A DNA stretch of 64,000 nt from Iphinoe sp. HA4291-MV1 (GTDB taxonomy: Bacteria > Cyanobacteriota > Cyanobacteriia > Cyanobacteriales > Nostocaceae). Each line of letters begins with the position of its first letter. The stretch's first letter is position 1. A program made the position numbers and the translations under genes. The stretch is taken from positions 58,242 through 122,241 of the forward strand of contig JAHHHH010000011.1 of assembly GCA_019359415.1 (NCBI GenBank), read 5' to 3'. The notes under the pieces were generated by a model. That model had not been told where the DNA came from, ran no database searches, and worked only from the letters and a program-made list of their open reading frames with translations. Of this stretch, positions 24,250 through 45,868 are shown piece by piece.

Positions 24250-25569
24250 TTATTTTGGGCTAACTTTATCAATCGTCTTGATTTTACCGTCGTCCCCAAC
24301 TGTCCAGACATCATAGATACCGACAACATCCCCGTTTTCGTCAACATCCACGTTGCCACTGGCTCCTTGGTAGTTGATGTCTTTACCTTCTTTTAATAAC
24401 TTGAGTCCCTCACATACATCTGTCACTTCTATCCCAGGAGCATTGGCAACCTCGCGGATTTTGTTGGCTATGCCAACACCTGTATTCTCCTTCGCAGCTT
24501 GTGCCGCTAGCACTAACAAGGCGGTGGCGTCCCAACCTTGAGGAGCAAATTCTCCTGGTGCGCCTCCTCTTTTGGACTTCCAGAGTTTAGTAAGAGCTTC
24601 TAATGCTTTGCCGTTGGAACCTGGTACCGTACCAATCACTCCAGATACGATATATTTACCGTCACTGGTTTTGCCGACTTGTCCAGGAAAATCATTTGAC
24701 TTCATTCCATCTGTCAGCATTACCTGCACCCCTTGCAGCAAACCTTGCTGATACGCTGCTTTTAGCAGTAAACTACCTGTTTCTACGTAAAAAACGCCAA
24801 GGACTGCATCAGGCTTACCAGCAAAAGCAGCCGATGCTTCAGTATCAAATGTGGTTGCTTTTGGATCGTAGCGGACAGGATTGTTTTTATTAACAATAGT
24901 TCCCCCTTGTTTTTCAAAAGCTTGCACAAATGCTTTTTCAAAGCCGACGCCATAATCATTATTTATGACGACTGTAGAAACTCTTTTATAACCTCTTTTA
25001 TTGGCAAGTGCGGCTATGGCTGGTCCCTGGTAGCTATCAGGTGGAACGGTACGTGCCCAAAATCCTTTAAATTTACCTTGTTTCGCTTGTTCAGTAAATA
25101 TGGGGCTAGTACTGCCAGGAGAAACTAGTATGACTTTATTTTGAGCGGCAATTGAGACAGCAGCAGTAGAAACGCTGCTGGCAAAAGAGCCAACGACGCC
25201 TGCAACTCGATCTACAGTTGCCAGTTTGGTCATACCAGCAGCACCAGCTTTGGGGTCAGTTTGGTCGTCTACTTGCACAAGAGTTACAGGCTCACCGTTC
25301 ACGCCATCACAAGCATTGACAGTTTCCACAAGCAAGGGGACTGAGGGTATAATCTGCTGTCCAATGGAAGCTAAGTCACCAGTGGCTGGTAGCAGAGAAC
25401 CGATTTTCAATCCTTTACCACTGGTAGGTATTGTTGTTGAGCCTTCTTTTGTGGCACTCCCACCATTACCAGCTGCGTTGTTCGGGGCGGTAGTATCACA
25501 AGCCGCTGCCAGGAAACCAACTGCCAGAGTAGCCAAAGCCAGAGCAAAAGCAGCATTTATCTTTTGCAT
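24250..25569 (-). CDS. ABC-transporter substrate-binding lipoprotein, branched-chain amino acid type
   Basis: 439 residues. Lipoprotein signal with lipobox LAAAC (Cys24), then a type I periplasmic binding protein fold: LKIGSLLPATGDLASIGQ, VDDQTDPKAGAAGMTKL, GSFASSVSTAAVSIAAQNKV, VVINNDYGVGFEKAF, GVFYVETGSLLLKAAYQQG. It resembles cyanobacterial binding proteins for neutral or branched-chain amino acids (NatB/LivK group). Cognate permease and ATPase genes are not adjacent, which is common for these systems in cyanobacteria. The ligand cannot be assigned. Confidence 0.88.
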   Translation of the reverse strand: MQKINAAFALALATLAVGFLAAACDTTAPNNAAGNGGSATKEGSTTIPTSGKGLKIGSLLPATGDLASIGQQIIPSVPLLVETVNACDGVNGEPVTLVQVDDQTDPKAGAAGMTKLATVDRVAGVVGSFASSVSTAAVSIAAQNKVILVSPGSTSPIFTEQAKQGKFKGFWARTVPPDSYQGPAIAALANKRGYKRVSTVVINNDYGVGFEKAFVQAFEKQGGTIVNKNNPVRYDPKATTFDTEASAAFAGKPDAVLGVFYVETGSLLLKAAYQQGLLQGVQVMLTDGMKSNDFPGQVGKTSDGKYIVSGVIGTVPGSNGKALEALTKLWKSKRGGAPGEFAPQGWDATALLVLAAQAAKENTGVGIANKIREVANAPGIEVTDVCEGLKLLKEGKDINYQGASGNVDVDENGDVVGIYDVWTVGDDGKIKTIDKVSPK

Positions 25570-26052: not shown

Positions 26053-26985
26053 TCATAACACTTGTGCTCGTAACCATGCCACTGGCAAAGCACGTAACTT
26101 TTGCCACTGAGGCACATAGGCACGTCGAGTAAAGACATTGTAATCATTACGTTCAATGACAGTCAAAATTCGACTGTAATGCATGAGAGATGCCCACACA
26201 GGTAATCGAGCATCAGTAGATAGATAGGAAATTCCCTTTTCTGCCTTGGCGTAAAATTGGCGTGCCCGTGCAATTTGAAAGCGCATGAGTGCCCGCCAGC
26301 GCTCATCCACCACTCCTTTCAACAGGTCTTGCTCTGTGTAGTTGAATTGCGCTAAGTCTTCTTGAGGAATATAAATCCGCCCTCGCCTTGCATCTTCCCC
26401 CACGTCCCGCAGGATGTTGGTGAGTTGATGGGCTATTCCCAAGGTAATCGCTTCTTCAGTGGGAATATACGGTTGTTGATGGCGATTCCACGGAGCTGTG
26501 TTTGTGGAGGTATCAACCCCCATCACCGCTGTTGACATCAAACCTACCGTGCCAGCGACGCGGTAACAGTAGAGGTATAACTCCTCAAAAGTTTGGTAGC
26601 GACTACGGTATAAGTCCATACCCTGACCGGCAATCATATCCCGGAAGGGCTGAATATCTATCGGGAAACGCTGAATGGTATCCACCAAAGCGACATCAAG
26701 ACTGTCCAATGGATGTCCTGCAAAAATCAATTCTAGCTGCTGTTCCCACAGATCCAGGGTTTCTGGTGTGGTCATAGCAGATGCGGGACCATCCACGAGT
26801 TCGTCTGTACGGCGACACCAAGCATAAATTGCCCAAATATGTTTGCGCTTTGGCTTGTTGACCAGCAAAGTGCCAATGTAAAAAGTCGTGGAATACTTGA
26901 CTATAAGCTGGCGACAAAGTTTGTAGGACTCGTCCACAGAGACCGGTGTTTTCATGCGAGGGATGGAATCAGGCAGTTGCAGCAT
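26053..26985 (-). CDS. crtB: Phytoene synthase
   Basis: 310 residues. Joins two geranylgeranyl diphosphates to 15-cis-phytoene, the first step of carotenoid synthesis. Both Asp-rich Mg-diphosphate motifs are present: DELVD within AWCRRTDELVDG and DVGED within NILRDVGEDARRGRIYIP; SSxFY-like TTFYIGTLL and AHQLTNILRD are also conserved. It lies 80 bp after crtP on the same strand, the standard cyanobacterial pair, so the two are probably cotranscribed. Confidence 0.97.
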   Translation of the reverse strand: MLQLPDSIPRMKTPVSVDESYKLCRQLIVKYSTTFYIGTLLVNKPKRKHIWAIYAWCRRTDELVDGPASAMTTPETLDLWEQQLELIFAGHPLDSLDVALVDTIQRFPIDIQPFRDMIAGQGMDLYRSRYQTFEELYLYCYRVAGTVGLMSTAVMGVDTSTNTAPWNRHQQPYIPTEEAITLGIAHQLTNILRDVGEDARRGRIYIPQEDLAQFNYTEQDLLKGVVDERWRALMRFQIARARQFYAKAEKGISYLSTDARLPVWASLMHYSRILTVIERNDYNVFTRRAYVPQWQKLRALPVAWLRAQVL

Positions 26986-27065
26986 TCGTTGCAGGCTGAA
27001 GGGTTTGCGTTTGCAGGCTTTTTGAATTTGCCATCGGATGTGCTTCAGCAGTCGTGTAGCGCGTC

Positions 27066-29235
<2,170 letters not shown>

Positions 29236-31918: not shown

Positions 31919-33526
31919 ATGCAGAATAAAGCAAGGAAACTCTTCCGAGAAGAAGCATTAGAACGCCTGTCCTCACCAGAACAACTTGATCGACTAATGC
32001 AGGTAACAAGCCCCCAAGCTTGGTTACCTTTAGTTTCTATAAGCTCTTTGGTCGTTGTGGTTGGCATTTGGGGTATAGTTGGGCGAATTCCGCTCACTGT
32101 TACAGGCTCTGGAGTGTTGCTGCGACCCCGTCATGTGGTACAATTTCAAGCACCTAGTACTGGTCAATTGTTAACTCTCAATATCAAGCCAGGAGATGTC
32201 GTTAGGCAAAGTCAAGTACTCGCCACAATCGACCAATCTAATGTTAGGCAACAACTACAACAAGAGAGATCAAAGTTAGTTCAGCTGCAAGAGCAGAATC
32301 TAGACACCGATAGGCTGCAAAAGCAACAAACAGCGCAGGCACTAAGAACACTTCAGCAGCAACAAAAAGATTTTGAAGAAAACCTGCACCGAGAATCAGT
32401 AGCACCAAAACTGCACTCACAAACGCTTCAAGCGCTAGAGCAAAAACGACAAAGCCTTGAGCAAAGTGTGTCAAGAGAACAAGTCGCGCCAACGCTGCAT
32501 AAGCAAACTCTCGCCGCACTAGCAGAAAAACGCAAAAGTCTTCAACAGCAAAAGGAACAAATCAACTCATTGCTGCAAACCTTGCAACAACGAGTTGAAA
32601 CTCGTCGTAATCTCTTTAAAGAAAAAATTATTAGTCAGGATGCATTACTGCAATCCCAGCAAGAATTGTTGAATGCTCAGACGCAAGTGTCGGACATTGA
32701 AGCACAACTCAAAGAACTTGAAGTTCAAAGAACCAATGCAGAGCGGGATTATTTGCAAAACCTCAATAAACTTGACGAAGTCAAAAACAACATTCAAGAA
32801 ATTGAAGTTCAAAGAACCGATGCAGAGCGGGATTATTTGCAAAATCTTAATAAATTTGACGAAATAAAAACCAAAATCAAAGATATCGAAGCGCAAAAAA
32901 CCAAACTGGTTCAACAAGATTTAGAAAAGTCAATAAATAAATTAAATCAAATTCAGGAAGTGAGACGCAAGATTGCCCAGTTAAAACTGCAATTAACTCA
33001 ATCAAGCCAAATTATTAGTAAATATGATGGTCGTATTTTGGAAGTTAGCGTCCTCCCCGGTCAAATTGTCGGCTCTGGTACCCGTATTGGAGCGATTGAA
33101 GCTGAAGATTCTAAAGCCAAACTACAAACCCTTGTCTACTTTGCAGATAAGGATGGCAAGCAAATAAAACCTGGCATGACTGTACAGGTCACTCCTAATG
33201 TTGTCAAGCGCGAGCGTTACGGTGGAATTGTTGGGGTAGTAACGAACGTTTCTCCCTTTCCCGTAACAACTGGCGACATTACAGCACAAGTCGGCAACGA
33301 AGACCTAGCTAAAAGCCTTGCTAATAGTAACGCAGCTCGCGTGCAAGTCTTCGTCCAACTCCAAAAAGACCCAAACACTGTCAGTGGTTACAAATGGTCT
33401 TCTTCTGATGGACCAGCACTCAAACTCTCATCTGGTACGACTACGCTAGTCCGGGTTAAAGTTGGAGAAGTCGCACCTATCTCTTACATCATTCCTATAT
33501 TTCGCTCTTGGACTGGCATTTACTAA
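31919..33526 (+). CDS. NHLP/NHLM-type bacteriocin secretion protein, HlyD family
   Basis: 535 residues. One membrane helix (about 35-56, WLPLVSISSLVVVVGIWGIVG), then a barrel-sandwich half (PSTGQLLTLNIKPGDVVRQSQVLATID), a very long periplasmic coiled coil (about 110-370), the second half-motif (YDGRILEVSVLPGQIVGSGTRIGAIE) and a beta-barrel domain. It bridges an inner-membrane ABC exporter to the outer envelope in type I-like secretion. The coiled coil has an in-frame 84-bp direct repeat (32720-32803 and 32804-32887, 28 residues each, EVQRTxAERDYLQNLNK). First gene of the exporter operon; the start lies 17 bp after a MITE end. Confidence 0.9.
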   Translation: MQNKARKLFREEALERLSSPEQLDRLMQVTSPQAWLPLVSISSLVVVVGIWGIVGRIPLTVTGSGVLLRPRHVVQFQAPSTGQLLTLNIKPGDVVRQSQVLATIDQSNVRQQLQQERSKLVQLQEQNLDTDRLQKQQTAQALRTLQQQQKDFEENLHRESVAPKLHSQTLQALEQKRQSLEQSVSREQVAPTLHKQTLAALAEKRKSLQQQKEQINSLLQTLQQRVETRRNLFKEKIISQDALLQSQQELLNAQTQVSDIEAQLKELEVQRTNAERDYLQNLNKLDEVKNNIQEIEVQRTDAERDYLQNLNKFDEIKTKIKDIEAQKTKLVQQDLEKSINKLNQIQEVRRKIAQLKLQLTQSSQIISKYDGRILEVSVLPGQIVGSGTRIGAIEAEDSKAKLQTLVYFADKDGKQIKPGMTVQVTPNVVKRERYGGIVGVVTNVSPFPVTTGDITAQVGNEDLAKSLANSNAARVQVFVQLQKDPNTVSGYKWSSSDGPALKLSSGTTTLVRVKVGEVAPISYIIPIFRSWTGIY

Positions 33527-33703
33527 CACAATCACTGACGGTTGTCAACTCATTCGCTTAATTCAATTCAAATTATAAATTCAAAATTAAGATTCTTGTT
33601 TTTTGAATTTCTCACGCTCGCGAATGAGTGAATTTGAGCGTGCTCGTGGGTCACCCTTCACGCCTGATTCTATCTTTTTTGGGCACTCATGCTGAACTAA
33701 ACT

Positions 33704-35920
33704 ATGCCTTTTGCTTTGATTGAGAAGATTCTGCAACACCACACGAGTCGTGTTCGCACCCCTACACTTTTGCAAATGGAAGCGACCGAATGCGGTGCTG
33801 CTGCCCTCGGAATTATTCTAGGTTATTACAGTCGTATTGTACCTTTAGCTGAATTGCGTCGCGAGTGTGGTGTCTCGCGAGATGGTTCCAATGCTTTTCA
33901 TATCGTTAAAGCAGCCCAAAACTATGGCTTAAATGCCAAAGGTTTCAAAAGATCCCTAGAAAGTCTTACAGCCCTTTCTTCCCCCTACATTGTCTTTTGG
34001 AATTTTAACCACTTTTTGGTGGTGGAAGGTTTTGGAAGAAACCGCGTCTACCTTAACGATCCTGCTACAGGACGCCGGACCGTTTCCCTAGAAGAGTTTA
34101 ACCGTGCTTACACTGGCGTTGTCTTGGCGATGGAGCCAGGACCAAACTTTCAACAATGTGGTAGAAAAAGTAACATTGTCTGGTCCTTGGCTTCACGCTT
34201 GCAACACTCGCAGGGTACTATCCTATTCTGCCTTCTAGCAGGACTGTTGCTGACTGTTCCTCGGTTGGCAGTACCAGGTTTTACTCAAGTATTTGTCGAT
34301 GAAATTCTCATCTCTGACCGTTCTGACTGGATACGACCATTGGTATTAGGAATGGTTCTCACCGCCGTGCTCAGGGGCTTTCTCGCTTCGTTGCGGCTAA
34401 CCTACCTGCGACGGCTGATGCTTAAGTTGTCAGTCACGATGTCGGGGCAGTTTCTCTGGCATATACTGCGTTTGCCAGTTGGGTTTTACGCCCAGCGCTA
34501 TTCTGGTGAAATCAGCTCTCGGGTGCAACTGAACGACAAAGTTGCGGGTGTACTTTCAAGTTCCCTTGCAACCACGGTTATTGACGCGGTGATGATGGTC
34601 TTTTACTTTCTGATTATGTTTCAGTATGACCGGGTACTCACAAGCGTAGCTCTTGGTTTTGCGGTGATAAATTTCCTCGCCCTACAGTTTTTATCGCAGA
34701 TGAGGGTGGATGCCAATATGAAGCTGGCGCAGGAATATGGTAAGGTCAATGGGGTAGCGATCGCAGGCATTCAAACGATAGAAACAATCAAAGCTTCGGG
34801 GCTTGAGTCCGACTCGTTTGCTAAATTCGCTGGGTATTATGCCAAAGCACTAAATGCTCAACAGGAATTGGCTCTCCAAACTCAAATTCTGACAATCTTA
34901 CCTACCCTTTTGACAGCGCTAACAACCGCCTCTATTTTACTTGTTGGCGGCTATAGAGTGATGAACGGTAGCCTCAGTATTGGGATGTTAGTTGCCTACC
35001 AAAGTTTAACAGCAAGTTTCCTGGAGCCAATTAACAGTCTAATTAATTTTGGCAGTTTGTTGCAAGATTTAGAGGCTGACTTAAACCGACTTGATGACGT
35101 ACTGCAAAACTCAACTGATGCAGAGGTGGAAAGGAAAGCAGGAGAGCAGAGGAGCAACGGAGCAACGGAGAATGACCAATTACCAATATCCTTTCGGTTG
35201 CAAGGTTACGTTGAGTTGCGGAATATAACCTTTGGCTACAGCCGCGTGGACAATCCCTTGATTGAGAACTTTAGTCTGACTTTGAAGCCAGGACAACGAG
35301 TAGCGATTGTGGGGGGTAGTGGTTCTGGCAAGTCTACGATTGCTAAGCTCATTTGCGGTCTTTATGAGCCTTGGGGGGGAGCAATTTACTTTGATGGCGA
35401 ATCCAGAACTCAAATTCAGCGTTCTGTTTTAGCAAATTCTTTGGCAATGGTGGAACAAGATATTTTTCTGTTTGCTGGGACGGTTCGGGAAAATCTTACT
35501 CTATGGGATTCGACAGTATCACAAGCTGATTTGGTGCGGGCTTGCTCTGACGCAGCCATTCACGATTTAATTCTATCTCTGCCTGGGGGATATGACGCCA
35601 ACCTGATTGAAGGAGGAATGAACCTCAGTGGCGGACAGCGCCAGCGTTTAGAAATTGCCCGCGCTTTGGTGAGAAATCCGGTGGTGTTGGTGTTGGATGA
35701 GGCAACAAGTTCGCTGGATGTTCAAACAGAATTAATGATTGATAGGAATTTGCGGCAGCGCGGTTGTTCCTGTATTGTCATTGCCCACCGGCTCAGCACG
35801 ATTCGAGATTGCGATGAAATTATCGTACTGGAGCAGGGCAAAGTCGTACAACGAGGCACCCATGAGGAGTTATGGGAACAAGGAGGTAAATATGCCCACT
35901 TAATAGGCATGAATTTTTGA
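33704..35920 (+). CDS. C39 peptidase/permease/ATPase ABC exporter, NHLP bacteriocin type
   Basis: 738 residues. N-terminal C39 peptidase (about 15-145) with catalytic Cys30 (MEATECGAAAL), His103 (NHFLVVEGF) and Asp119 (LNDPATG); this domain cuts leader peptides after a double Gly. The permease domain has about six helices (160-460), with a low-complexity insert (EVERKAGEQRSNGATEN) before the ATPase. The ATPase carries GGSGSGKST (about 537), LSGGQRQR (about 641) and LVLDEATSSLD. It follows the HlyD gene by 178 bp and precedes two double-Gly peptide genes that are its likely cargo. The second, peptidase-free ABC protein of complete NHLM systems is not seen here. Confidence 0.94.
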   Translation: MPFALIEKILQHHTSRVRTPTLLQMEATECGAAALGIILGYYSRIVPLAELRRECGVSRDGSNAFHIVKAAQNYGLNAKGFKRSLESLTALSSPYIVFWNFNHFLVVEGFGRNRVYLNDPATGRRTVSLEEFNRAYTGVVLAMEPGPNFQQCGRKSNIVWSLASRLQHSQGTILFCLLAGLLLTVPRLAVPGFTQVFVDEILISDRSDWIRPLVLGMVLTAVLRGFLASLRLTYLRRLMLKLSVTMSGQFLWHILRLPVGFYAQRYSGEISSRVQLNDKVAGVLSSSLATTVIDAVMMVFYFLIMFQYDRVLTSVALGFAVINFLALQFLSQMRVDANMKLAQEYGKVNGVAIAGIQTIETIKASGLESDSFAKFAGYYAKALNAQQELALQTQILTILPTLLTALTTASILLVGGYRVMNGSLSIGMLVAYQSLTASFLEPINSLINFGSLLQDLEADLNRLDDVLQNSTDAEVERKAGEQRSNGATENDQLPISFRLQGYVELRNITFGYSRVDNPLIENFSLTLKPGQRVAIVGGSGSGKSTIAKLICGLYEPWGGAIYFDGESRTQIQRSVLANSLAMVEQDIFLFAGTVRENLTLWDSTVSQADLVRACSDAAIHDLILSLPGGYDANLIEGGMNLSGGQRQRLEIARALVRNPVVLVLDEATSSLDVQTELMIDRNLRQRGCSCIVIAHRLSTIRDCDEIIVLEQGKVVQRGTHEELWEQGGKYAHLIGMNF

Positions 35921-36436
35921 TCAATCTCCTTTGGGTCTGTTGAATCGAACTTCAAGAGACATCCTCTTACGGAAATCTACGATCTGAAATGTTTTAAATT
36001 GATGACTTTCTCCTCCTTTTGGAAGATTTTTTAGCTCAGTAAATCCTCCATACTTTCAACAGTATTACGCACTACTTAAGTAGTCAATCTGCACTCACGC
36101 CACTAACTCAGGGTGCTCGATATCTTCAGCAGTTATGCATCTTACCTTTCACAATATGTTCCGAATTGCTGCTCGACGTTACTTTCGAGTTACTCATATT
36201 CTGAACTCGTTTTTTGCACTCACCACGTGGTGGGTATAATGTGCTTAGTACGACTGGTTCTACTGTTTACATTATTTTCTCTGTGATAGCACTGAGAATG
36301 AAATCCGTTTTTAATTCTGAATCAAAAAATTAAAGATTAGGTAAAAGTTGCTCTATTGACTCTCTTAAGCGGTTTACAAGTTCCAAATATTCTTCTAAAC
36401 TTGTGATGAAATACTTACTCAAAGGAGTCATTCAAC
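35921..36436. promoter_or_regulatory. Leader region of the first peptide gene
   Basis: About 515 bp. It contains a segment (36017-36085) that is repeated ahead of the second peptide gene (37049-37117), a perfect palindrome ACTACTTAAGTAGT (36071-36084) and a promoter-like site (36214-36240). No gene is convincing; a 34-codon frame at 36135-36239 is noted and rejected. Confidence 0.55.
36214..36240 (+). promoter_or_regulatory. Candidate sigma-70 promoter with palindrome in the spacer
   Basis: TTGCAC (36214-36219), then a perfect 12-bp palindrome CACCACGTGGTG (36221-36232), then TATAAT (36235-36240). The -35/-10 spacing is 15 bp, shorter than ideal. A dyad between the two boxes is a classic operator position for a dimeric repressor. 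Transcription would begin near 36247, giving a leader of about 190 bases before the peptide gene. Confidence 0.5.
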
Positions 36437-36634
36437 GTGAAAAAGATACAAACAAAAATCAACACTGTAACAGATGTTGAGACCAAAGAACAAGAATGTG
36501 AACTAACTTCTGCGGATCTAAAGGCGGTAGTTGGTGGGATAGACATTGTATTTGGAGACTTTGTAATTACAGTTCCTCATTATGTATACGCCGATGTGGA
36601 TGGGAGGCAATATAAAGTTTATGCCGAACAATAA
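36437..36634 (+). CDS. Double-glycine leader peptide precursor 1
   Basis: 65 residues, GTG start with a strong AAAGGAG site eight bases ahead. The leader (1-34) ends in ELTSADLKAVVGG: hydrophobic residues at -12, -7 and -4 relative to the cut and Gly-Gly at -2/-1, as C39 peptidases require. The predicted released core is 31 residues (IDIVFGDFVITVPH... to AEQ), without Cys, acidic (about five acidic against two basic residues), rich in Val, Asp and Tyr, and predicted beta. It follows the C39 exporter by 516 bp. Function could be a microcin-like toxin, a signalling peptide or a precursor modified by enzymes elsewhere. Confidence 0.82.
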   Translation: MKKIQTKINTVTDVETKEQECELTSADLKAVVGGIDIVFGDFVITVPHYVYADVDGRQYKVYAEQ

Positions 36635-37130
36635 GTCTTGAAGTGTCTCCAGTTGTCTCGTGAGGAGGATGTATCCTATCCCCTCAATCATGTTTTGATA
36701 AGCACTCGATTGGCTTGGACAAACTTTTCAACCACTTGTGACACTCTAGGACGTTCCGATACTTGGTACCCCTCCCAAAGAGCCTACTGATCAAGTGTGT
36801 ATCATTAAATAGATAACGGCGAGTGTCCATGTGCAAGCGTGCCGCAAGTGTCAATTACACTGAGCGCAGTGCTCATTGGGCAATCGCTGTTATTTTGTGA
36901 GAGTGTGGACAATACGGTTTAGATAAGCCCACAGGTTAAGCCTGAGGCTAAACACACAAAGCTCGCCTGCGTGGGCTATATTGAAAGCTTTTTATTACTT
37001 AAGTAGATATACCAAAAAAAATATTTTAAATTTGTAGCTATTTATAACTTTTGGAGGATTTTTTCTTCTCAGTAAATATTCGATAACTTTAAGAGTACTA
37101 CGTACTACTCTAGTTAAGGGGAAGCTACTA
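36635..37130. promoter_or_regulatory. Region between the two peptide genes, duplicated flank
   Basis: The first part (about 36659-36800) matches the region after peptide gene 2 (about 37340-37480): shared blocks include ATCCTATC, ATAAGC, TTGGC.., GACAAAC.TTT and TGTGGCACT-like TGTGACACT. The last part (37049-37117) matches 36017-36085 ahead of peptide gene 1. TACTTAAGTA occurs at 36996-37005 as it does at 36073-36082. So each peptide gene sits in its own copy of one ancestral cassette. Confidence 0.65.
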
Positions 37131-37331
37131 ATGATGAAAGCAAAACAGCAAGAAGCCAGCAACCTAGAGCGCAACACCCTTCAATTTGAGGAACTTAGTG
37201 ATGCGGATCTCTTATCGGTGGTTGGTGGTCAAGATGGAATTGCTGATTTTTTTTACAATATAGGGATAAGCGCTAAGAACAGCTTCCTTGTCGCCTTCCT
37301 TGGCAGTGATGGAAAAGTTGGAGAATACTAG
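37131..37331 (+). CDS. Double-glycine leader peptide precursor 2
   Basis: 66 residues, ATG at 37131 with AAGGGGA eight bases ahead. Leader (1-33) ends in FEELSDADLLSVVGG, a textbook double-Gly leader. The predicted core is 33 residues (QDGIADFFYNIGIS... to GEY), no Cys, with Gly, Phe and small residues and an amphipathic middle (IGISAKNSFLVAFLG). Leader similarity to precursor 1 is clear (xELxxADLxxVVGG) but the cores differ fully, the usual pattern for peptide families under diversifying selection that share one exporter. Confidence 0.82.
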   Translation: MMKAKQQEASNLERNTLQFEELSDADLLSVVGGQDGIADFFYNIGISAKNSFLVAFLGSDGKVGEY

Positions 37332-37799
37332 ATTTAGGTCATCCTATCCTATCTCCCAAATCATTTATTAATAAGCGCTCTATTGGCAAAGACAAACCTT
37401 TCTACCATTTGTGGCACTTTGGGATGCTTAGGATAAGAGGCACTGCTCCCTGCTAAGCTAATTAACTATGACCAGGTGTGCATTTTCAATTGCCTTTTGG
37501 GCTAACTTTTACCCCACATTCCGCAGGTGTGATCGTAAATGCTGTATTTTCAGTAGACCGAAAAGATTTCTAGAAGGCTTACCATTGGGGCATTCTGGCG
37601 GATTGTATACAATCCGCCAGAATGCCCGTATCATCTGCGTTTTGAGCAATAGGGTTGTAGATGAGTTCTCCTGCTAAGGTAAGCGATCGCTCGACCCTGT
37701 GCCCAAAACATCGCCCCAAACCCTCATTCTTGCGTTGACTGACAAAAGTTTTCGGTCTACTGATTTTTGAAAATGAAGTAAATGCTGCAATTTTGAAGC
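37332..37799. repeat. Remnant sequences with large palindromes upstream of the transposase
   Basis: After the duplicated flank of the peptide cassette (to about 37480) come a perfect palindrome GGCATTCTGGCGGATTG/TATACAATCC... (37588-37625) and a wide inverted repeat: CAGTAGACCGAAAA (37550-37563) and TTTTCGGTCTACTG (37749-37762). These are probably leftovers of an insertion sequence whose transposase starts at 37800. Confidence 0.55.
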
Positions 37800-38203
37800 A
37801 TGACAGCATCACCACTAAATATCAGGGTACAGGATATTGACCACTGCGGCATAGTCGCAGGTATATGTGATCAAATGGGACTAATAGAGCAAATCAATCG
37901 ATTGCTAGGAACCCATCCTCAAGAAATAATTAGTACAGGGCAAGTTGTGAAAGCAATGATTCTCAATGGATTAGGCTTTGTGAGTGCGCCATTGTACCTG
38001 TTTGAAAAATTTTTTGAAGGGCATTGCCACAGAACATTTGTTGGGGTCAGGGATACACCCTGAACACTTAAACGATGACCGTCTGGGTAGGGTTTTAGAC
38101 AAGCTTTATTCCAAAGGTCAAAGGGCATTGCGTCAAGCCTTAGAACGAGCAAAACAAACGATCAATAACCAGTTGAGCAAACCGACAGCTACCCCAACCT
38201 TAC
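37800..38203 (+). pseudogene. IS1634-like (DUF4277) transposase, frameshifted and internally deleted
   Basis: The first frame gives MTASPLNIRVQDIDHCGIVAGICDQMGL... GQVVKAMILNGLGFVSAPLYLFEKFFEG, the N-terminal DUF4277 domain of this transposase group. A one-base insertion near 38020 moves it to the next frame, which continues ATEHLLGSGIHPEHLNDDRLGRVLDKLY. Then some hundreds of residues are missing and a C-terminal-like helix (RALRQALERAKQTINNQL) follows directly. The remnant ends at the junction with a glycosyltransferase fragment at about 38203. Inactive. Confidence 0.85.
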
Positions 38204-38890
38204 ATCAGTATTTCCGATACACAGCGAGAACAAAGGCTAGAGTTGAACTATGTAGCAACGGTTTACAACGGAATTGATGTTAGCAGTTATAAATTTTATC
38301 TCCAACCTGACGAACCGTCATATCTGGCATTTCTAGGTCGAATTTCTCCAGAGAAAGGAGCGCACTTGGCGATAGAAATTGCCAAACAAGCAGGCTGGCG
38401 CTTGAAGATGGCAGGTAAAGTGGATGTCGTTGATGTGGAATACTTTGAAAGAGAAATCAAGCCTTTAATTGATGGTCAGCAAATCGAATATTTGGGTGAA
38501 GCTAACCATGAGCAAAAAAATGCTTTGATGGGAGGTGCAGTAGCAACCTTATTCCCTATTACTTGGCGAGAACCGTTCGGGTTGGTTATGGTTGAATCAA
38601 TGGCATCTGGTACCCCAGTGATTGCGATGAACCTAGGGTCTACACGAGAGGTTATTGCTCACGGCAAAACAGGTTTTCTCTGCAACAACGTTGAAGAATG
38701 TGTGAGTGCTATTAGCAAGGTTGCTGAATTAGAACGCTCTGCCTGTCGAGAGTATGTCTGGAACTGTTTCAGCGTTCAGAACATGACTGATGGCTATGAA
38801 GCCGTTTATCACAAGATTTTGACAGAACGCTTTGCTTGGAATAACGGATATTTCCGCCATCCAGTTATTTCAAGCAACAAGTCTATTTAG
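38204..38890 (+). pseudogene. GT4 glycosyltransferase, 5' half missing
   Basis: In-frame homology starts at ISISDTQREQRLELNYVATVYNGIDV and continues to the stop: FLGRISPEKGAHLAIEIAKQAG, then EPFGLVMVESMASGTPVIAMNLGSTREVIAHGKTGFLC, the donor-binding half of group 1 transferases with its E-x7-E motif. The acceptor-binding N-terminal half (about 150 residues) is replaced by transposase sequence. A TTG at 38243 could start translation, but the product would lack half the active cleft. Unlikely to be functional. Confidence 0.85.
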
Positions 38891-41963: not shown

Positions 41964-42077
41964 GTGGCTGCCCAACACACCACGCTCAACGTATCACTGA
42001 CTCGTGAGCTTAATGAATTTATCGCTTTGCTCATATACAAATCAGCAAGCGAAGTCGTCTACAAAGGGCACTTATGA
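41964..42077 (+). pseudogene. ParD-like antitoxin N-terminal remnant
   Basis: Small frame of 37 codons (GTG start) reading AAQHTTLNVSLTRELNEFI and then KSASEVV, the ribbon-helix-helix start of ParD antitoxins (TTLNVSLxxELxEFV...SASEVVREAL). A few residues between the two helices and the whole C-terminal toxin-binding part are missing. Its TGA overlaps the start codon of the sensor kinase (ATGA). No ParE toxin follows. Probably a relic; it could still couple translation to the kinase. Confidence 0.6.
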
Positions 42078-45000
42078 AGGACGGGCATCAATCGGACTAC
42101 TTCCCTGGACCTGGTGAAATGAGGGCACGTATGCGTGCGTTCGATTGGGCAAGCACACCTGTTGGTCTGGTTGAGACATGGTCGCAAAGCCTGAAAAGCA
42201 TGGTGAAGACTCTCCTGGCGTCACAGTACCCAATGGTCCTGATTTGGGGTTCTCATCTCATTCAGTTTTATAATGATGCTTATTCCAAGCTGATCGGTGA
42301 TAAGCACCCTGCTGCTCTTGGTACTGATATTAGAATGACGCTGGCGGAGGCGTGGGATACGCTTGGTCCGATGATTGACGAAGTTATGACAACTGGCGTG
42401 GCAAATTGGGTTCCGGCACAGATGCTTGTCTTGGAACGAGCAGGCTACCGTGAAGAGTCCTACTTTAGCCTCTCTCATGCCCCGGCGGAAGATGATTCGG
42501 AACAAATCGTTGGTATGTTTTGCGTTTGTAGCGAGGTGACCCAACAGGTCTTAGGCGAGCGGAGGTTGCGACTTCTTCGTGATCTGGCATCAAAAGCAGG
42601 CGAGACGCGCAGTGTAGAAACAACGTGCCACGACTTAGCAGGAGCGATCGCAGAACACCCACTTGATGTGCCATTTGCCCTACTCTACCTCCGTGAGGCG
42701 GATGGCAAAACTCTCACACTACGTAGCTCGGTACGGTTACCAGAGGGAGAACTGCTTAGCCCAGTTTCTGTAGATACCACAGCACCAGGAACAGATATAT
42801 GGTCGCTAGCACGAGCAGCGACAGGTGAAACTGTCCTAGTTGAGGGTGTAGATTGCTACGAATCATTACCCGGCGGACCTTGGAATGAGCCTACCCGTGC
42901 TGCACTTGTGATGGCGATCGCTTCATCAAGTCAAACGGCTCCACTAGGCGTTCTGGTTGCTGGAGTCAGTCCTAACCGAGCGCTCGATGAAGGTTACAAC
43001 TCGTTCTATGAACTCCTTGCAGCGCAGGTATCTGTTGCCATACGAAACGCCCAAGCATACGAGGAAGAAAGGCGGCGATCTGAAATACTTGCTGAACTTG
43101 ACCGAGCAAAAACCGCCTTCTTTTCCAACGTCAGTCATGAGTTCCGCACCCCGCTCACGCTCATGCTAGGTCCATTGGAAGACGCGCTTTACGACCCACA
43201 ACTCTCATCGCCTCAGCGAGAGCAGATTACCATTGCTCACCGCAACAGTCTCAGGCTACTGAAACTCGTCAATACGCTTCTTGACTTCTCGCGTATCGAA
43301 GCGGGTCGAATGCAAGCTGTCTACGAACCTACAGATCTAGCAGCACTGACTACAGATCTTGCAAGTGTGTTTCGGTCAGCGATCGAGAAGGCAGGGTTAC
43401 AGTTGATGGTTGATTGTCCACCATTGCCTGAGCCAATTTATATAGACCGGGATATGTGGGAAAAGATTGTCCTTAACCTACTCTCGAACGCTTTGAAATT
43501 TACGCAACAAGGTTACATCACGGTTCGCCAGTATATAGTTGGGGAAAACTTTGAACTGCAAGTCGAAGATACAGGCAGTGGTATTCCTGAGTCTGAACTG
43601 AACAACGTATTTAAGCGGTTCCATCGCATTGAAGGAACACAAGGTCGAACATATGAAGGCACTGGGATTGGTCTTGCGCTTGTGCAGGAACTCGCCAAAC
43701 TGCATGGTGGCAATGTGCGGGTACAAAGCATTTACAACTCTGGGAGTATTTTTACTATCTCAATTCCCCGAGGCAAGCAGCACCTTTCCTCCGACCGGAT
43801 CGGAAGTGAACGCACACTAACCTCAACAAACATTCGAGCCGACATATTCGTTGAAGAAGCACTGCGGTGGTTGCCAGAAGAAGCAAGGGAGCAAACTCTC
43901 TCCCCTGCTCCTTCTGCCCGAATTCTCCTCGCAGACGACAACGCAGATATGCGTGAGTATGTGCGAAAGCTTCTGAGCACACAGTATGAAGTTGTTGCCG
44001 TCGCAGATGGCGAGGCAGCCTTGGTTGCGGCATATGAACGGGTACCGGACTTGGTGCTAACTGATATTATGATGCCGAAACTCGATGGCTTCGGTCTTCT
44101 CACACAGCTTCGTACTGACGAGCGTACACGTTCTGTACCAATCGTTCTCCTTTCGGCTCGTGCAGGTGAGGAATCACGTGTTGAGGGATTGGAAGCAGGA
44201 GCGGACGACTATTTGGTAAAGCCGTTTAGCACTCGAGAACTCTTGGCTCGTGTCAAAGCAACCTTGGAAACAGCTCGGCTGCGACAGGAAGCTGCTCGCT
44301 CTCGCTTGGAGATTGAAGCGACTCAGGAACGAGCAGCCATTCTTGAACGTGTCACCGATGCCTTTTATGGACTTGACCGACAGTGGCGATTTACGTATGT
44401 GAATCGGCGATGTGAGGAGTATCTCGGCAAAACACGTGAAGAGTTGCTCGGTAAAGTCATCTGGGACGAGTTTGCGATCGCAAGGGGCACTGCCTTCGAG
44501 GAGCAGTACCATAAAGCCATACGTGATCAAGTAGCGGTGCATTTTGAGATATTATCCCCTTTCTCTAACCGATGGGTGGAAATGCATGCCTACCCCTCTG
44601 CTGACGGGCTTTCAGTTAATTTCCATGACATCACTGACCGTAAACATCTGGAGGAGCGACGCGAGGCGCTTTTGGAAAGCGAGCAAGCAGCCCGTGCGGA
44701 AGCAGAGAGAATTGGACGTCTCAAAGATGAATTCCTCGCAACCCTCTCTCACGAACTCCGGACACCGCTGAATGCAATACTAGGTTGGACTCAGATTTTG
44801 CTGCGTAGAGGAACAATTGATACTACAGAATTGAGAAAGGGGCTTGAGACCATTGAGAGAAACTCGCGATCGCAAGCGCAGATTATCGAAGACCTTTTGG
44901 ACATGAGCCGAATCATATCGGGTAAAGTTCGACTTGATGTGGAGAATGTCAATCTTCGCTCAGTGATTGAAGCGGCGATTGAATCTATCCTTCCAGCTCT

Positions 45001-45868
45001 TGCAGCAAAGGACATACGACTTCAAACAGTTTTGGATGCTATTCCTGTGTTCATGACTGGCGATCCGAACAGATTACAACAAATTGTGTGGAATCTTCTC
45101 TCCAATGCCATTAAGTTTACCCCTCAGGGTGGAAGGGTGCGGGTGTTGCTTGAAAAGATGGATTCCCACGTCGAGTTAATAGTCAGTGATACAGGTGAGG
45201 GCATCAAATCTGAGTTTTTGCCCTACGTTTTCGACCGTTTTCGGCAAGCAGATTCTTCTACGACACGGAAGTTTGGCGGTTTGGGATTAGGGCTTTCAAT
45301 TGTCAAGCAACTCGTTGAGCTTCACGGAGGAACCATACAAGCAACAAGCCCTGGAGAGGGACAAGGCGCTACACTTACTGTGATGTTTCCACTCGCTCAT
45401 AGAGAAAGCGATAGTCATACTCAAGCAATTGAACATAGTTTTGATGATGAAAGGTTTACGACTACTGGATGTGAGAAAACGAACCTTGAAAGTACGAAAG
45501 TTCTCGTAGTCGATGATGAAATCGATGCTCAAGAGTTGGTCAAGAGAGTCCTTGAGGAATGCGGGGCTAACGTCCTTACCGCTTCCTCAACAGATGAGGC
45601 GCTTGAGCTTGTACAAACCTATATGCCACACGTAGTCGTTAGTGATATTGGTATGCCCGGAAAAGATGGGTATGAGTTCATCCGCACACTGCGAGGGCTT
45701 CCCTCGGAGATGGGAGGAGATATTCCGGCTGCAGCAGTCACCGCCTTTGCTCGTTTTGAAGATCGAATTCGTGCCTTGCGCTCTGGTTACCAAACGCATG
45801 TTGCCAAGCCTGTTGAGCCAGCAGAACTCATTGCGGTTGTCGCGTCTCTTGCAGGTCGTCATGACTGA
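42074..45868 (+). CDS. Hybrid sensor histidine kinase with two kinase cores and two receivers
   Basis: 1264 residues, soluble. Order: PAS-like sensor (about 40-155), GAF domain (about 165-320), HisKA with His354 (NVSHEFRTPL) and HATPase (NLLSNALKFT, DTGSGIP, GTGIGLALV), receiver with phospho-acceptor Asp about 663 (LVLTDIMMPK), PAS (about 750-860, VTDAFYGLDRQWRFTYVNRRCEEYLG), a second HisKA with His about 893 (TLSHELRTPL) and HATPase (DTGEGI, GLGLGLSIV), and a final receiver with Asp about 1190 (VVVSDIGMPG). This allows an internal phosphorelay. No transmembrane segment, so it senses a cytoplasmic signal. Cognate regulator not adjacent. Confidence 0.94.
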   Translation: MKDGHQSDYFPGPGEMRARMRAFDWASTPVGLVETWSQSLKSMVKTLLASQYPMVLIWGSHLIQFYNDAYSKLIGDKHPAALGTDIRMTLAEAWDTLGPMIDEVMTTGVANWVPAQMLVLERAGYREESYFSLSHAPAEDDSEQIVGMFCVCSEVTQQVLGERRLRLLRDLASKAGETRSVETTCHDLAGAIAEHPLDVPFALLYLREADGKTLTLRSSVRLPEGELLSPVSVDTTAPGTDIWSLARAATGETVLVEGVDCYESLPGGPWNEPTRAALVMAIASSSQTAPLGVLVAGVSPNRALDEGYNSFYELLAAQVSVAIRNAQAYEEERRRSEILAELDRAKTAFFSNVSHEFRTPLTLMLGPLEDALYDPQLSSPQREQITIAHRNSLRLLKLVNTLLDFSRIEAGRMQAVYEPTDLAALTTDLASVFRSAIEKAGLQLMVDCPPLPEPIYIDRDMWEKIVLNLLSNALKFTQQGYITVRQYIVGENFELQVEDTGSGIPESELNNVFKRFHRIEGTQGRTYEGTGIGLALVQELAKLHGGNVRVQSIYNSGSIFTISIPRGKQHLSSDRIGSERTLTSTNIRADIFVEEALRWLPEEAREQTLSPAPSARILLADDNADMREYVRKLLSTQYEVVAVADGEAALVAAYERVPDLVLTDIMMPKLDGFGLLTQLRTDERTRSVPIVLLSARAGEESRVEGLEAGADDYLVKPFSTRELLARVKATLETARLRQEAARSRLEIEATQERAAILERVTDAFYGLDRQWRFTYVNRRCEEYLGKTREELLGKVIWDEFAIARGTAFEEQYHKAIRDQVAVHFEILSPFSNRWVEMHAYPSADGLSVNFHDITDRKHLEERREALLESEQAARAEAERIGRLKDEFLATLSHELRTPLNAILGWTQILLRRGTIDTTELRKGLETIERNSRSQAQIIEDLLDMSRIISGKVRLDVENVNLRSVIEAAIESILPALAAKDIRLQTVLDAIPVFMTGDPNRLQQIVWNLLSNAIKFTPQGGRVRVLLEKMDSHVELIVSDTGEGIKSEFLPYVFDRFRQADSSTTRKFGGLGLGLSIVKQLVELHGGTIQATSPGEGQGATLTVMFPLAHRESDSHTQAIEHSFDDERFTTTGCEKTNLESTKVLVVDDEIDAQELVKRVLEECGANVLTASSTDEALELVQTYMPHVVVSDIGMPGKDGYEFIRTLRGLPSEMGGDIPAAAVTAFARFEDRIRALRSGYQTHVAKPVEPAELIAVVASLAGRHD

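What the first reader, a model, noticed from the sequence alone, without database searches (positions are those of the whole stretch)
31919..37331. Exporter with two tandem double-glycine peptides: an uncharacterised secreted peptide system
An HlyD adaptor and a C39-ABC exporter of NHLP type are followed by two small genes with strong ribosome binding sites. Both products end their leaders in xELxxADLxxVVGG and have unrelated 31- and 33-residue cores without Cys, so they are neither lantipeptides nor disulfide microcins. NHLP transporters usually go with nitrile-hydratase-like or Nif11 leaders and with modifying enzymes; here leaders are short and no modification enzyme or immunity gene is present. 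One core is acidic and Val/Tyr-rich, the other amphipathic. They could act together as a two-peptide toxin or signal.
Basis: partly seen in the sequence, partly recalled or inferred. Interest (0 to 1): 0.78.

Follow-up and report, generated by a model that had tools for sequence, protein, structure and literature searches.

The report
Variable secreted peptides of a cyanobacterium
A filamentous cyanobacterium has a peptide exporter followed by two small genes that share the same export tag but carry unrelated payloads; relatives put a similar tag on other payloads, one of them resembling a surface coat protein of soil actinomycetes.

Summary
In detail: an NHLP-type HlyD (TIGR03794) and C39-ABC exporter (TIGR03796) are followed by two small genes with homologous double-glycine leader ends and unrelated, Cys-free 31- and 33-residue cores. 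The kind is known (cyanobacterial 'bacteriocin' clusters, PMC3140520); a two-peptide toxin is not specifically supported. New here: (1) a model of the two window leaders alone finds the leader at 5 of the 9 closest exporter loci at E<0.01 (a sixth at 0.038), with other cores, and in 1 of 71 more distant loci. (2) In three Brasilonema loci this leader carries a chaplin core (PF03777), the Streptomyces surface protein; with EbfG of Synechococcus elongatus this favours surface or matrix peptides. (3) Between the two genes leader end and 3' flank are alike, cores are not. (4) The 3' flank is an antisense remnant of an IS200-like transposase, also found behind unlinked GG-peptide genes (10 of 22 copies by model, 14 with four accepted by eye). 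(5) The partner ABC2 lies on another contig. Secretion, cleavage and function are inferred. New variant of a known kind.

The parts
31919..33526 (+). HlyD-type membrane fusion protein (NHLP secretion protein), 535 aa
   Evidence: TIGR03794 359 bits, cut-off 156; 76.6-83.6% identical to the HlyD beside the exporter in L009-L017
33704..35920 (+). C39 peptidase / ABC exporter (NHLP ABC1), 738 aa; no cyclic-nucleotide-binding domain among its Pfam matches
   Evidence: TIGR03796 1160 bits, cut-off 853; Peptidase_C39, ABC_membrane, ABC_tran; Cys/His/Asp align to a solved transporter; only match over the cut-off in the genome
36437..36634 (+). precursor 1: 34-aa leader ending in GG, 31-aa acidic core; GTG start
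37131..37331 (+). precursor 2: 33-aa leader ending in GG, 33-aa acidic core; ATG start
36672..36751 (+). 3' flank of unit 1; 79% identical to 37345-37424
   Evidence: 3' flank z 12.7
37345..37424 (+). 3' flank of unit 2
36703..36782 (-). remnant of the C-terminal coding end of an IS200-like (Y1_Tnp) transposase, antisense to precursor 1
   Evidence: model R1 77.8 bits (this copy was in the training set); protein match with one stop; longer relatives
37375..37452 (-). the same remnant behind precursor 2
   Evidence: model R1 67.6 bits (in the training set)
36027..36081 (+). upstream repeat, unit 1 (75% identical to 37060-37114), about 355 nt before the start codon
37060..37114 (+). upstream repeat, unit 2, 16 nt before the start codon
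37550..37763 (.). 214-bp MITE-like element with 20-nt inverted ends (90% complementary); copies on contigs C8 and C13
   Evidence: (pair I2)
37800..38063 (+). DUF4277 ORF (probably a transposase piece, recalled) beyond the peptide genes
   Evidence: PF14104 E 1.7e-25

Best explanation
This is an NHLP-type (HlyD + C39-ABC) secretion locus with two unmodified precursors. The C39 domain cuts each precursor after Gly-Gly and the ABC/HlyD pair releases the 31- and 33-residue cores. The leader is an export tag found mainly at close relatives of this exporter; what lies behind it is freely exchanged. The two window genes are a duplicated cassette whose ends (leader end; 3' flank with a transposase remnant) stayed alike while the core was replaced or diverged beyond recognition, and further cassettes with the same kind of 3' flank are scattered in the genome. 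The cores most likely act outside the cell as surface or matrix peptides (self-assembling or adhesive), as EbfG does in Synechococcus elongatus and as the chaplin core behind a homologous leader in Brasilonema suggests. Shown: gene content, leader homology, unrelated cores, shared 3' flank, chaplin core in relatives. Inferred: cleavage, secretion, duplication with core exchange, surface or matrix role.
For: Exporter families and aligned catalytic positions. A model of the two window leaders alone finds other-core peptides at E<0.01 in 5 of the 9 closest loci (L009, L012, L013, L016, L017) and in 1 of 71 more distant ones. Island pattern between the two genes: leader end z 6.8, core -0.1, 3' flank 12.7. 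Further precursors on C13 and C81 by leader (read), on C33 and C138 by 3' flank. Chaplin core PF03777, E 1e-23 to 6e-29, between HlyD and exporter in L009, L016, L017; its leader is recovered by a model that holds no chaplin leader, E 4e-6 to 3e-5; a MauE-domain gene follows (cluster in all three; Pfam run on the L016 copy). EbfG1-4 secreted through a C39 exporter and needed for biofilm (PMC4997328, Results read); EbfG1-3 form amyloid (PMC9981879, passages). Precursor 1's core is rich in V, I, Y, F, W, T (1.1% of 2,801 background windows reach it; by mean beta propensity 5.4%).
Against: Precursor 2's core is not beta-rich (33% and 45% of background windows reach it), and the chaplin core itself does not stand out by these measures (43% and 24%), so they say little. 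Neither window core matches a Pfam or NCBIfam family at its cut-off or a PHROG at E 0.1. No match to either core region appeared in a DNA search of 30 relatives, but that search scored at most 12 candidates per genome and is insensitive; selection on the cores cannot be measured. The chaplin is in Brasilonema; I did not search the window's own genome for PF03777. S. elongatus has no match over the TIGR03796 cut-off, so EbfG's exporter is only a distant cousin. The Nostoc locus L021 has a LanM near the same exporter type, so substrates vary.
Confidence: 0.5

Rival explanations
1. Unmodified double-glycine bacteriocins (microcin-like), acting singly or as a pair against related cyanobacteria; core variability reflects an arms race and immunity lies elsewhere or in the exporter.
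For: C39/HlyD export, very variable cores, several scattered precursors; the field's default name (PMC3140520, Results read). Hypervariable cores fit antagonism well.
Against: No immunity gene recognised in the window proteins scanned; no GxxxG in either core; relatives carry a chaplin core behind a homologous leader. Both cores are acidic (-3, -2), but PMC3140520 reports that most NHLP and N11P precursors are negatively charged, so this weighs little.
Confidence: 0.33
2. Secreted signal peptides (between cells or along the filament).
For: C39 exporters may serve signalling: HetC in Nostoc PCC 7120 is proposed to export a signalling peptide (PMC10986499, passages). A hybrid histidine kinase (42074-45868) lies 4.7 kb beyond peptide 2 and a periplasmic ligand-binding protein at 24250-25569, with unrelated genes in between.
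Against: Cores differ completely between close relatives and between the two genes, which a receptor would not easily tolerate; no receptor gene is directly adjacent.
Confidence: 0.1
3. Modified RiPP whose enzymes act in trans.
For: The Nostoc locus L021 has a LanM (PF13575 + LANC_like) near the same exporter type.
Against: No Cys in either core, 1 and 3 Ser/Thr only; no PF13575 hit in the own genome (no control genome rang, so absence is not proven). Other modifying enzymes were not searched genome-wide.
Confidence: 0.05
4. Decaying remnant: the cassette has lost its ABC2 neighbour, is beset by transposon debris, and the small genes are no longer used. (This can overlap with any former function, so the odds given here do not add to one.)
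For: ABC2 unlinked on C8, although 67 of 80 relatives' stretches hold one; MITE and transposase pieces downstream.
Against: HlyD, ABC1, ABC2 and both precursors are open frames; exporter 81-85% identical to those of nine relatives.
Confidence: 0.12

Closest known systems
Cyanobacterial 'bacteriocin' gene clusters, group III of Wang, Fewer and Sivonen 2011 (PMC3140520)
   Same: HlyD plus short C39-ABC without CAP_ED, several small GG precursors with variable cores; 40 of 74 group III precursors there also fall outside the named leader families (Table 2)
   Different: By descent probably a three-gene cassette: 67 of 80 relatives' stretches hold ABC2, here ABC2 is unlinked. Exchange of cores between a conserved leader and a transposase-derived 3' flank is not in the parts I read (abstract, Results, passages); the paper does mention transposase-linked rearrangements
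NHLP/NHLM three-gene export system (TIGR03794, TIGR03796, TIGR03797)
   Same: All three families present over their cut-offs in this genome
   Different: ABC2 on another contig; leaders match no family model at cut-off
EbfG1-4 / PteB of Synechococcus elongatus PCC 7942 (PMC4997328, PMC9981879)
   Same: Small GG precursors, C39 exporter, several precursors together
   Different: S. elongatus gives no match over the TIGR03796 cut-off; sequences not aligned here beyond a short NIG motif seen by eye; biofilm role untested here
Chaplins (ChpA-C, PF03777) of Streptomyces
   Same: In Brasilonema L009, L016, L017 the core behind the homologous leader is a chaplin; the L017 core is 64-86% identical over the aligned part to proteins on actinomycete plasmids (15 of 21 records listed)
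   Different: Double-glycine leader and C39 exporter instead of a Sec signal (Sec export of chaplins recalled); the window's own precursors have no PF03777 match
RAYT / IS200-like Y1 transposases (name RAYT recalled)
   Same: 3' flanks of the peptide genes match the C-terminal end of such a transposase
   Different: Only remnants here; REP repeats were not tested for

Membership tests
NHLP three-gene export system | HlyD of TIGR03794 | tested here: met
   359 bits, cut-off 156
NHLP three-gene export system | C39-ABC of TIGR03796 | tested here: met
   1160 bits, cut-off 853
NHLP three-gene export system | second ABC protein TIGR03797 in the cluster | tested here: not met
   present over the cut-off but on contig C8, not in the window
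NHLP three-gene export system | precursor with NHLP or Nif11 leader | tested here: not met
   no Pfam or NCBIfam match at cut-off for either precursor
Wang group III cluster | HlyD + short C39-ABC; no second ABC, LanM or SurA in the cluster | tested here: met
   Pfam on 16 window proteins between 24250 and 45868 shows none of these beside HlyD and ABC1
Wang group III cluster | ABC1 falls in clade III, not V+VII | tested here: inconclusive
   no tree made; ABC2 in 67 of 80 relatives' stretches argues for V-like descent
EbfG/PteB biofilm system | exporter of the same family | tested here: not met
   S. elongatus control genome rings below the TIGR03796 cut-off only
EbfG/PteB biofilm system | secreted matrix or biofilm function | not testable with these tools
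   needs culture work
Two-peptide (class IIb) bacteriocin | GxxxG-type motifs in the cores (recalled as a class feature) | tested here: not met
   none in either core
Two-peptide (class IIb) bacteriocin | dedicated immunity gene next to the peptides | tested here: inconclusive
   none recognised; a 57-codon hydrophobic ORF at 36113-36286 has no Pfam match and no other support
Chaplin | ChpA-C domain (PF03777) | tested here: not met
   window precursors: no match; met in L009, L016, L017
Class II lanthipeptide | Cys in the core | tested here: not met
   no Cys in either core
Class II lanthipeptide | LanM encoded in the genome | tested here: inconclusive
   no PF13575 hit, but no control genome rang either

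The most novel reading that the evidence does not exclude
Scytonema/Brasilonema-type cyanobacteria use one double-glycine leader as a universal export tag onto which arbitrary cores are grafted, including a chaplin domain shared with Streptomyces; the tagged genes spread around the genome as cassettes bounded on the 3' side by a transposase end, so that a mobile element helps to build a changing coat of secreted surface peptides.
Probability: 0.25. Interest if true: 0.82.

Novelty: new variant of a known kind. Interest (0 to 1): 0.58.

Why it matters
Many double-glycine peptides of cyanobacteria are called bacteriocins (290 precursors from 58 genomes in PMC3140520) with little functional data. 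A clade where a homologous leader carries a recognisable surface protein gives a testable alternative for a whole class. If cores are really swapped between a fixed leader and a transposase-derived 3' flank, it also gives a physical route for the core variability of such precursors, and a handle (the 3' flank) for finding precursors that the leader search missed, as happened here for C33 and C138.

Tried and rejected
Rejected: (a) 3' flank as a structured regulatory RNA. RNAalifold gave a weak structure with an unfavourable covariation term for the first part; Rfam had no match up to E 0.1 in 35900-38300; the flank turned out to be antisense transposase coding sequence. The second part (hairpin, A4/R2) shows one pair with changes on both sides and may be a terminator, but in the window R2 has only one weak match (13.4 bits, at 1040, far from the peptides). 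In the own genome R2's six places at E<1e-4 (C81, C33, C138, C26, C119, C48) have a GG-peptide ORF on the 5' side, same strand, in three (C81, C33, C138); C48 has one on the other side; C26 and C119 none found. (b) A conserved antisense immunity gene in the flank: some copies contain stops and longer relatives are transposases. (c) Such transposases in general linked to GG peptides: in 20 loci only L160 scored with the leader HMM, three counting the places seen by eye as L149 and L155. The link is with one set of remnants. (d) Beta propensity as evidence: only precursor 1 stands out, and the chaplin does not. (e) Orthologues of the two-peptide unit: none in 30 relatives by an insensitive DNA search; hits were transposase remnants and a dispersed repeat. 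(f) Precursor 2 on plasmids: no match. (g) Upstream regions of unlinked precursors in the own genome: none shared except peptide 1 with peptide 2.

Caveats on counts. R1 was trained on five peptide-linked copies, so its hits lean towards their kin. Of the 17 copies not used in training, 6 have a leader-HMM hit (score 5 or more, within 400 nt, same strand), 9 with those accepted by eye (L148, L149, L155). The value 2e-10 treats copies as independent, which they are not. Four of the eight misses are copies behind enolase (L145, L146, L156, L157; read, Pfam on the L145 frame only). Leader specificity is not absolute: the model also hits two ORFs of L056 (E 5.8e-4, 1.6e-3) and the window-only model one of L071 (9.2e-3), all distant loci.
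Full report
WHAT IS THERE. The window is a 64-kb part of contig C4 of a 7.36-Mb genome in 140 contigs. HlyD (31919-33526) and the C39-ABC exporter (33704-35920) pass the NCBIfam cut-offs for TIGR03794 and TIGR03796. The C39 domain is full length and its Cys, His and Asp align with a solved C39-ABC transporter. Two small genes follow: 36437-36634 (GTG start) and 37131-37331 (ATG), each with a purine-rich ribosome site. Neither matches a Pfam or NCBIfam family at its cut-off or a PHROG at E 0.1. Pfam on ten further window proteins shows ordinary genes (phytoene synthase and an amine oxidoreductase type, hydrolases, a periplasmic binding protein, a hybrid histidine kinase) or nothing; none is a known modification or immunity protein.

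THE LEADER IS REAL AND CENTRED ON CLOSE RELATIVES. I fetched 80 loci with related exporters from named genomes, the best 80 of 432. A first leader model (nine seeds) gave 18 match rows at E<0.01 from 11,480 small ORFs: 16 ORFs, among them the seeds and two ORFs of the distant L056; shuffled ORFs gave none at E<1. The fairest test uses the two window leaders alone: at E<0.01 it finds peptides in 5 of the 9 closest loci (L009, L012, L013, L016, L017; exporter 81-85% identical), L010 at 0.038, none in L011, L014, L015, and 1 of 71 more distant loci (L071, 9.2e-3). A seven-seed model without chaplin leaders, five of its seeds taken from L010, L012, L013, L016 and L017, adds L009 and finds no distant locus below 0.01. 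Trained without the window peptides, a five-seed model finds both (E 1.3e-6, 1.8e-3). Distant loci have other small GG precursors; the Nostoc loci L021 and L027 have long-leader ones, and L021 a LanM.

CORES ARE UNRELATED, ENDS ARE ALIKE. Between the two window genes the last 15 leader codons align at z 6.8 and the 3' flank at z 12.7 against shuffles; the first part of the leader gives 0.0, the 100 nt before the start codon -0.4, the cores -0.1 (DNA) and -0.6 (protein). Direct repeats: 55 nt upstream (75%), 38 nt leader end (74%), 80 nt downstream (79%). In unit 1 the upstream repeat lies about 355 nt before the start codon, in unit 2 only 16. This looks like a duplicated cassette with an exchanged or fast-changing core.

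MORE PRECURSORS IN THE SAME GENOME. A leader search of the whole genome gave the two window genes (E about 2e-9), C13 (7.5e-5), C81 (1.3e-3), then only E 0.7 or worse. The 3' flank led to two more that this search had missed: C33 (read) and C138. Others were seen only by eye (C81b, C124, C48).

WHAT THE 3' FLANK IS. It is shared by unlinked precursors. Read antisense it encodes a conserved end; a protein search of 21 genomes gave 43 matches in 14 of them, some in longer frames that are IS200-like Y1 transposases (PF01797), of the kind called RAYT (name recalled). An 82-position sequence model of five copies (R1) has 22 matches at E<=1e-3 in 31 genomes: 7 own, 15 in relatives, 9 of 31 genomes. 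A leader-HMM hit (score 5 or more) lies within 400 nt on the 5' side, same strand, in 10 of 22; on the 5' side, opposite strand, in 0 of 22; on the 3' side in 1 of 22 (that one is peptide 2 behind unit 1). The background rate per such window is 0.005, from 34 ORFs in 1.32 Mb of loci L018-L088. Accepting C138 and L148 (scores 3.3 and 4.6) and L149 and L155 by eye gives 14 of 22. The eight misses: C21, C26, L143, L150 and four copies behind enolase. Such transposases in general are not linked to GG peptides (1 to 3 of 20 loci). Hence one lineage of remnants travels with, or was trapped beside, these genes; dispersal as a unit and repeated insertion cannot be told apart here.

A CHAPLIN BEHIND A HOMOLOGOUS LEADER. 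In Brasilonema bromeliae SPC951 (L009), Brasilonema sp. CT11 (L017) and the MAG B. angustatum HA4187-MV1 (L016) a gene between HlyD and exporter has this leader and then a chaplin domain (PF03777, E 1.3e-23, 1.4e-27, 5.8e-29; gathering 21 bits). A gene of one cluster follows in all three, MauE-domain in the L016 copy; MauE-type proteins serve disulfide formation (recalled) and these cores have two Cys. The nearest matches to the L017 protein in the plasmid collection are in Streptomyces and kin (21 records, 15 listed, 64-86% identical over 42-58% of the query); alignments start at residue 40 to 55, around or after the GG at 42-43. In L016 the leader end reads VIAG, without GG. The same order in three assemblies makes contamination unlikely (inference). 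Chaplins coat aerial hyphae in streptomycetes (PMC4255298, passages). Literature: listings for chaplin with cyanobacteria (15 of 200 rows, many apparently the surname), chaplin with double-glycine and others (15 of 150) and chaplins, cyanobacteria, double-glycine (20 of 36) showed no title or abstract start on such a protein; of the papers that hold both chaplins and cyanobacteria I opened only PMC4255298.

HOW IT PROBABLY WORKS. The exporter cuts after GG and releases the cores (inferred from family). For function, precedents point three ways. EbfG1-4 of S. elongatus are secreted with a C39 exporter and needed for biofilm (PMC4997328, Results read); EbfG1-3 form amyloid (PMC9981879, passages). 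HetC of Nostoc PCC 7120 is proposed to export a signal (PMC10986499, passages). The default label is bacteriocin (PMC3140520, Results read). The chaplin core tips my balance to surface or matrix peptides, about 0.5 against 0.33 for bacteriocins. Peptide 1 is rich in V, I, Y, F, W, T (52%; 1.1% of background windows reach that), peptide 2 and the chaplin core are not. Peptide 2 holds FFYNIG, near the LAFNIG hotspot of EbfG2 quoted in PMC9981879; six residues prove nothing.

A SPLIT CASSETTE. In 67 of 80 relatives' stretches a second NHLP exporter (ABC2; 40% or more over 500 or more residues) is present; several of the other 13 are cut by contig ends. In this genome the only TIGR03797 match over the cut-off is on contig C8, 75.6-78.1% identical to the ABC2 in L010-L013 and L017. 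A 214-bp MITE-like element lies behind peptide 2 and has near-identical copies on C8 and C13, which may have helped to scatter the parts (speculation). Contig C8 is 13.7 kb, so the distance is unknown.

VERDICT. Confirmed observation, known kind, new variant. The two-peptide-toxin reading is possible but not favoured.

Noticed in passing
L009:7871-8152, L017:8550-8849, L016:8499-8810: Double-glycine-type leader followed by a chaplin domain (PF03777), with a MauE-cluster gene next to it, inside the orthologous exporter locus of three Brasilonema genomes.
   Followed up: yes
36703-36782 and 37375-37452: Antisense remnants of an IS200-like transposase C-terminus behind both peptide genes, and behind unlinked peptide genes on C33, C81 and C138.
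   Followed up: yes
37550-37763: MITE-like element with 20-nt inverted ends and an inner 40-nt palindrome; 99.6-100% identical copies on C8 (L095 850-1071) and C13 (L098 2029-2242).
   Followed up: partly
L095:2337-5123: ABC2 exporter (TIGR03797, 1004 bits) unlinked from HlyD and ABC1, on a 13.7-kb contig.
   Followed up: partly
36928-36978: Dispersed repeat between the two peptide genes; 12 matches in relative G018 at 81-91% identity.
   Followed up: no
L145, L146, L156, L157: The same transposase remnant lies behind the enolase gene in four relatives, without a GG peptide gene (Pfam check on one).
   Followed up: partly
L155:1228-1464: GG precursor in relative G002 with a Cys-rich core (4 Cys in 22 residues), before the same 3' flank.
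   Followed up: no
36113-36286: 57-codon ORF with a hydrophobic C-terminus just before peptide 1; no Pfam match, a conceivable immunity peptide without other support.
   Followed up: partly
26053-28517 (-): Phytoene-synthase family ORF (SQS_PSY, E 1e-76) next to an amine-oxidoreductase family ORF (E 8e-96), probably phytoene synthase and desaturase (names recalled).
   Followed up: no
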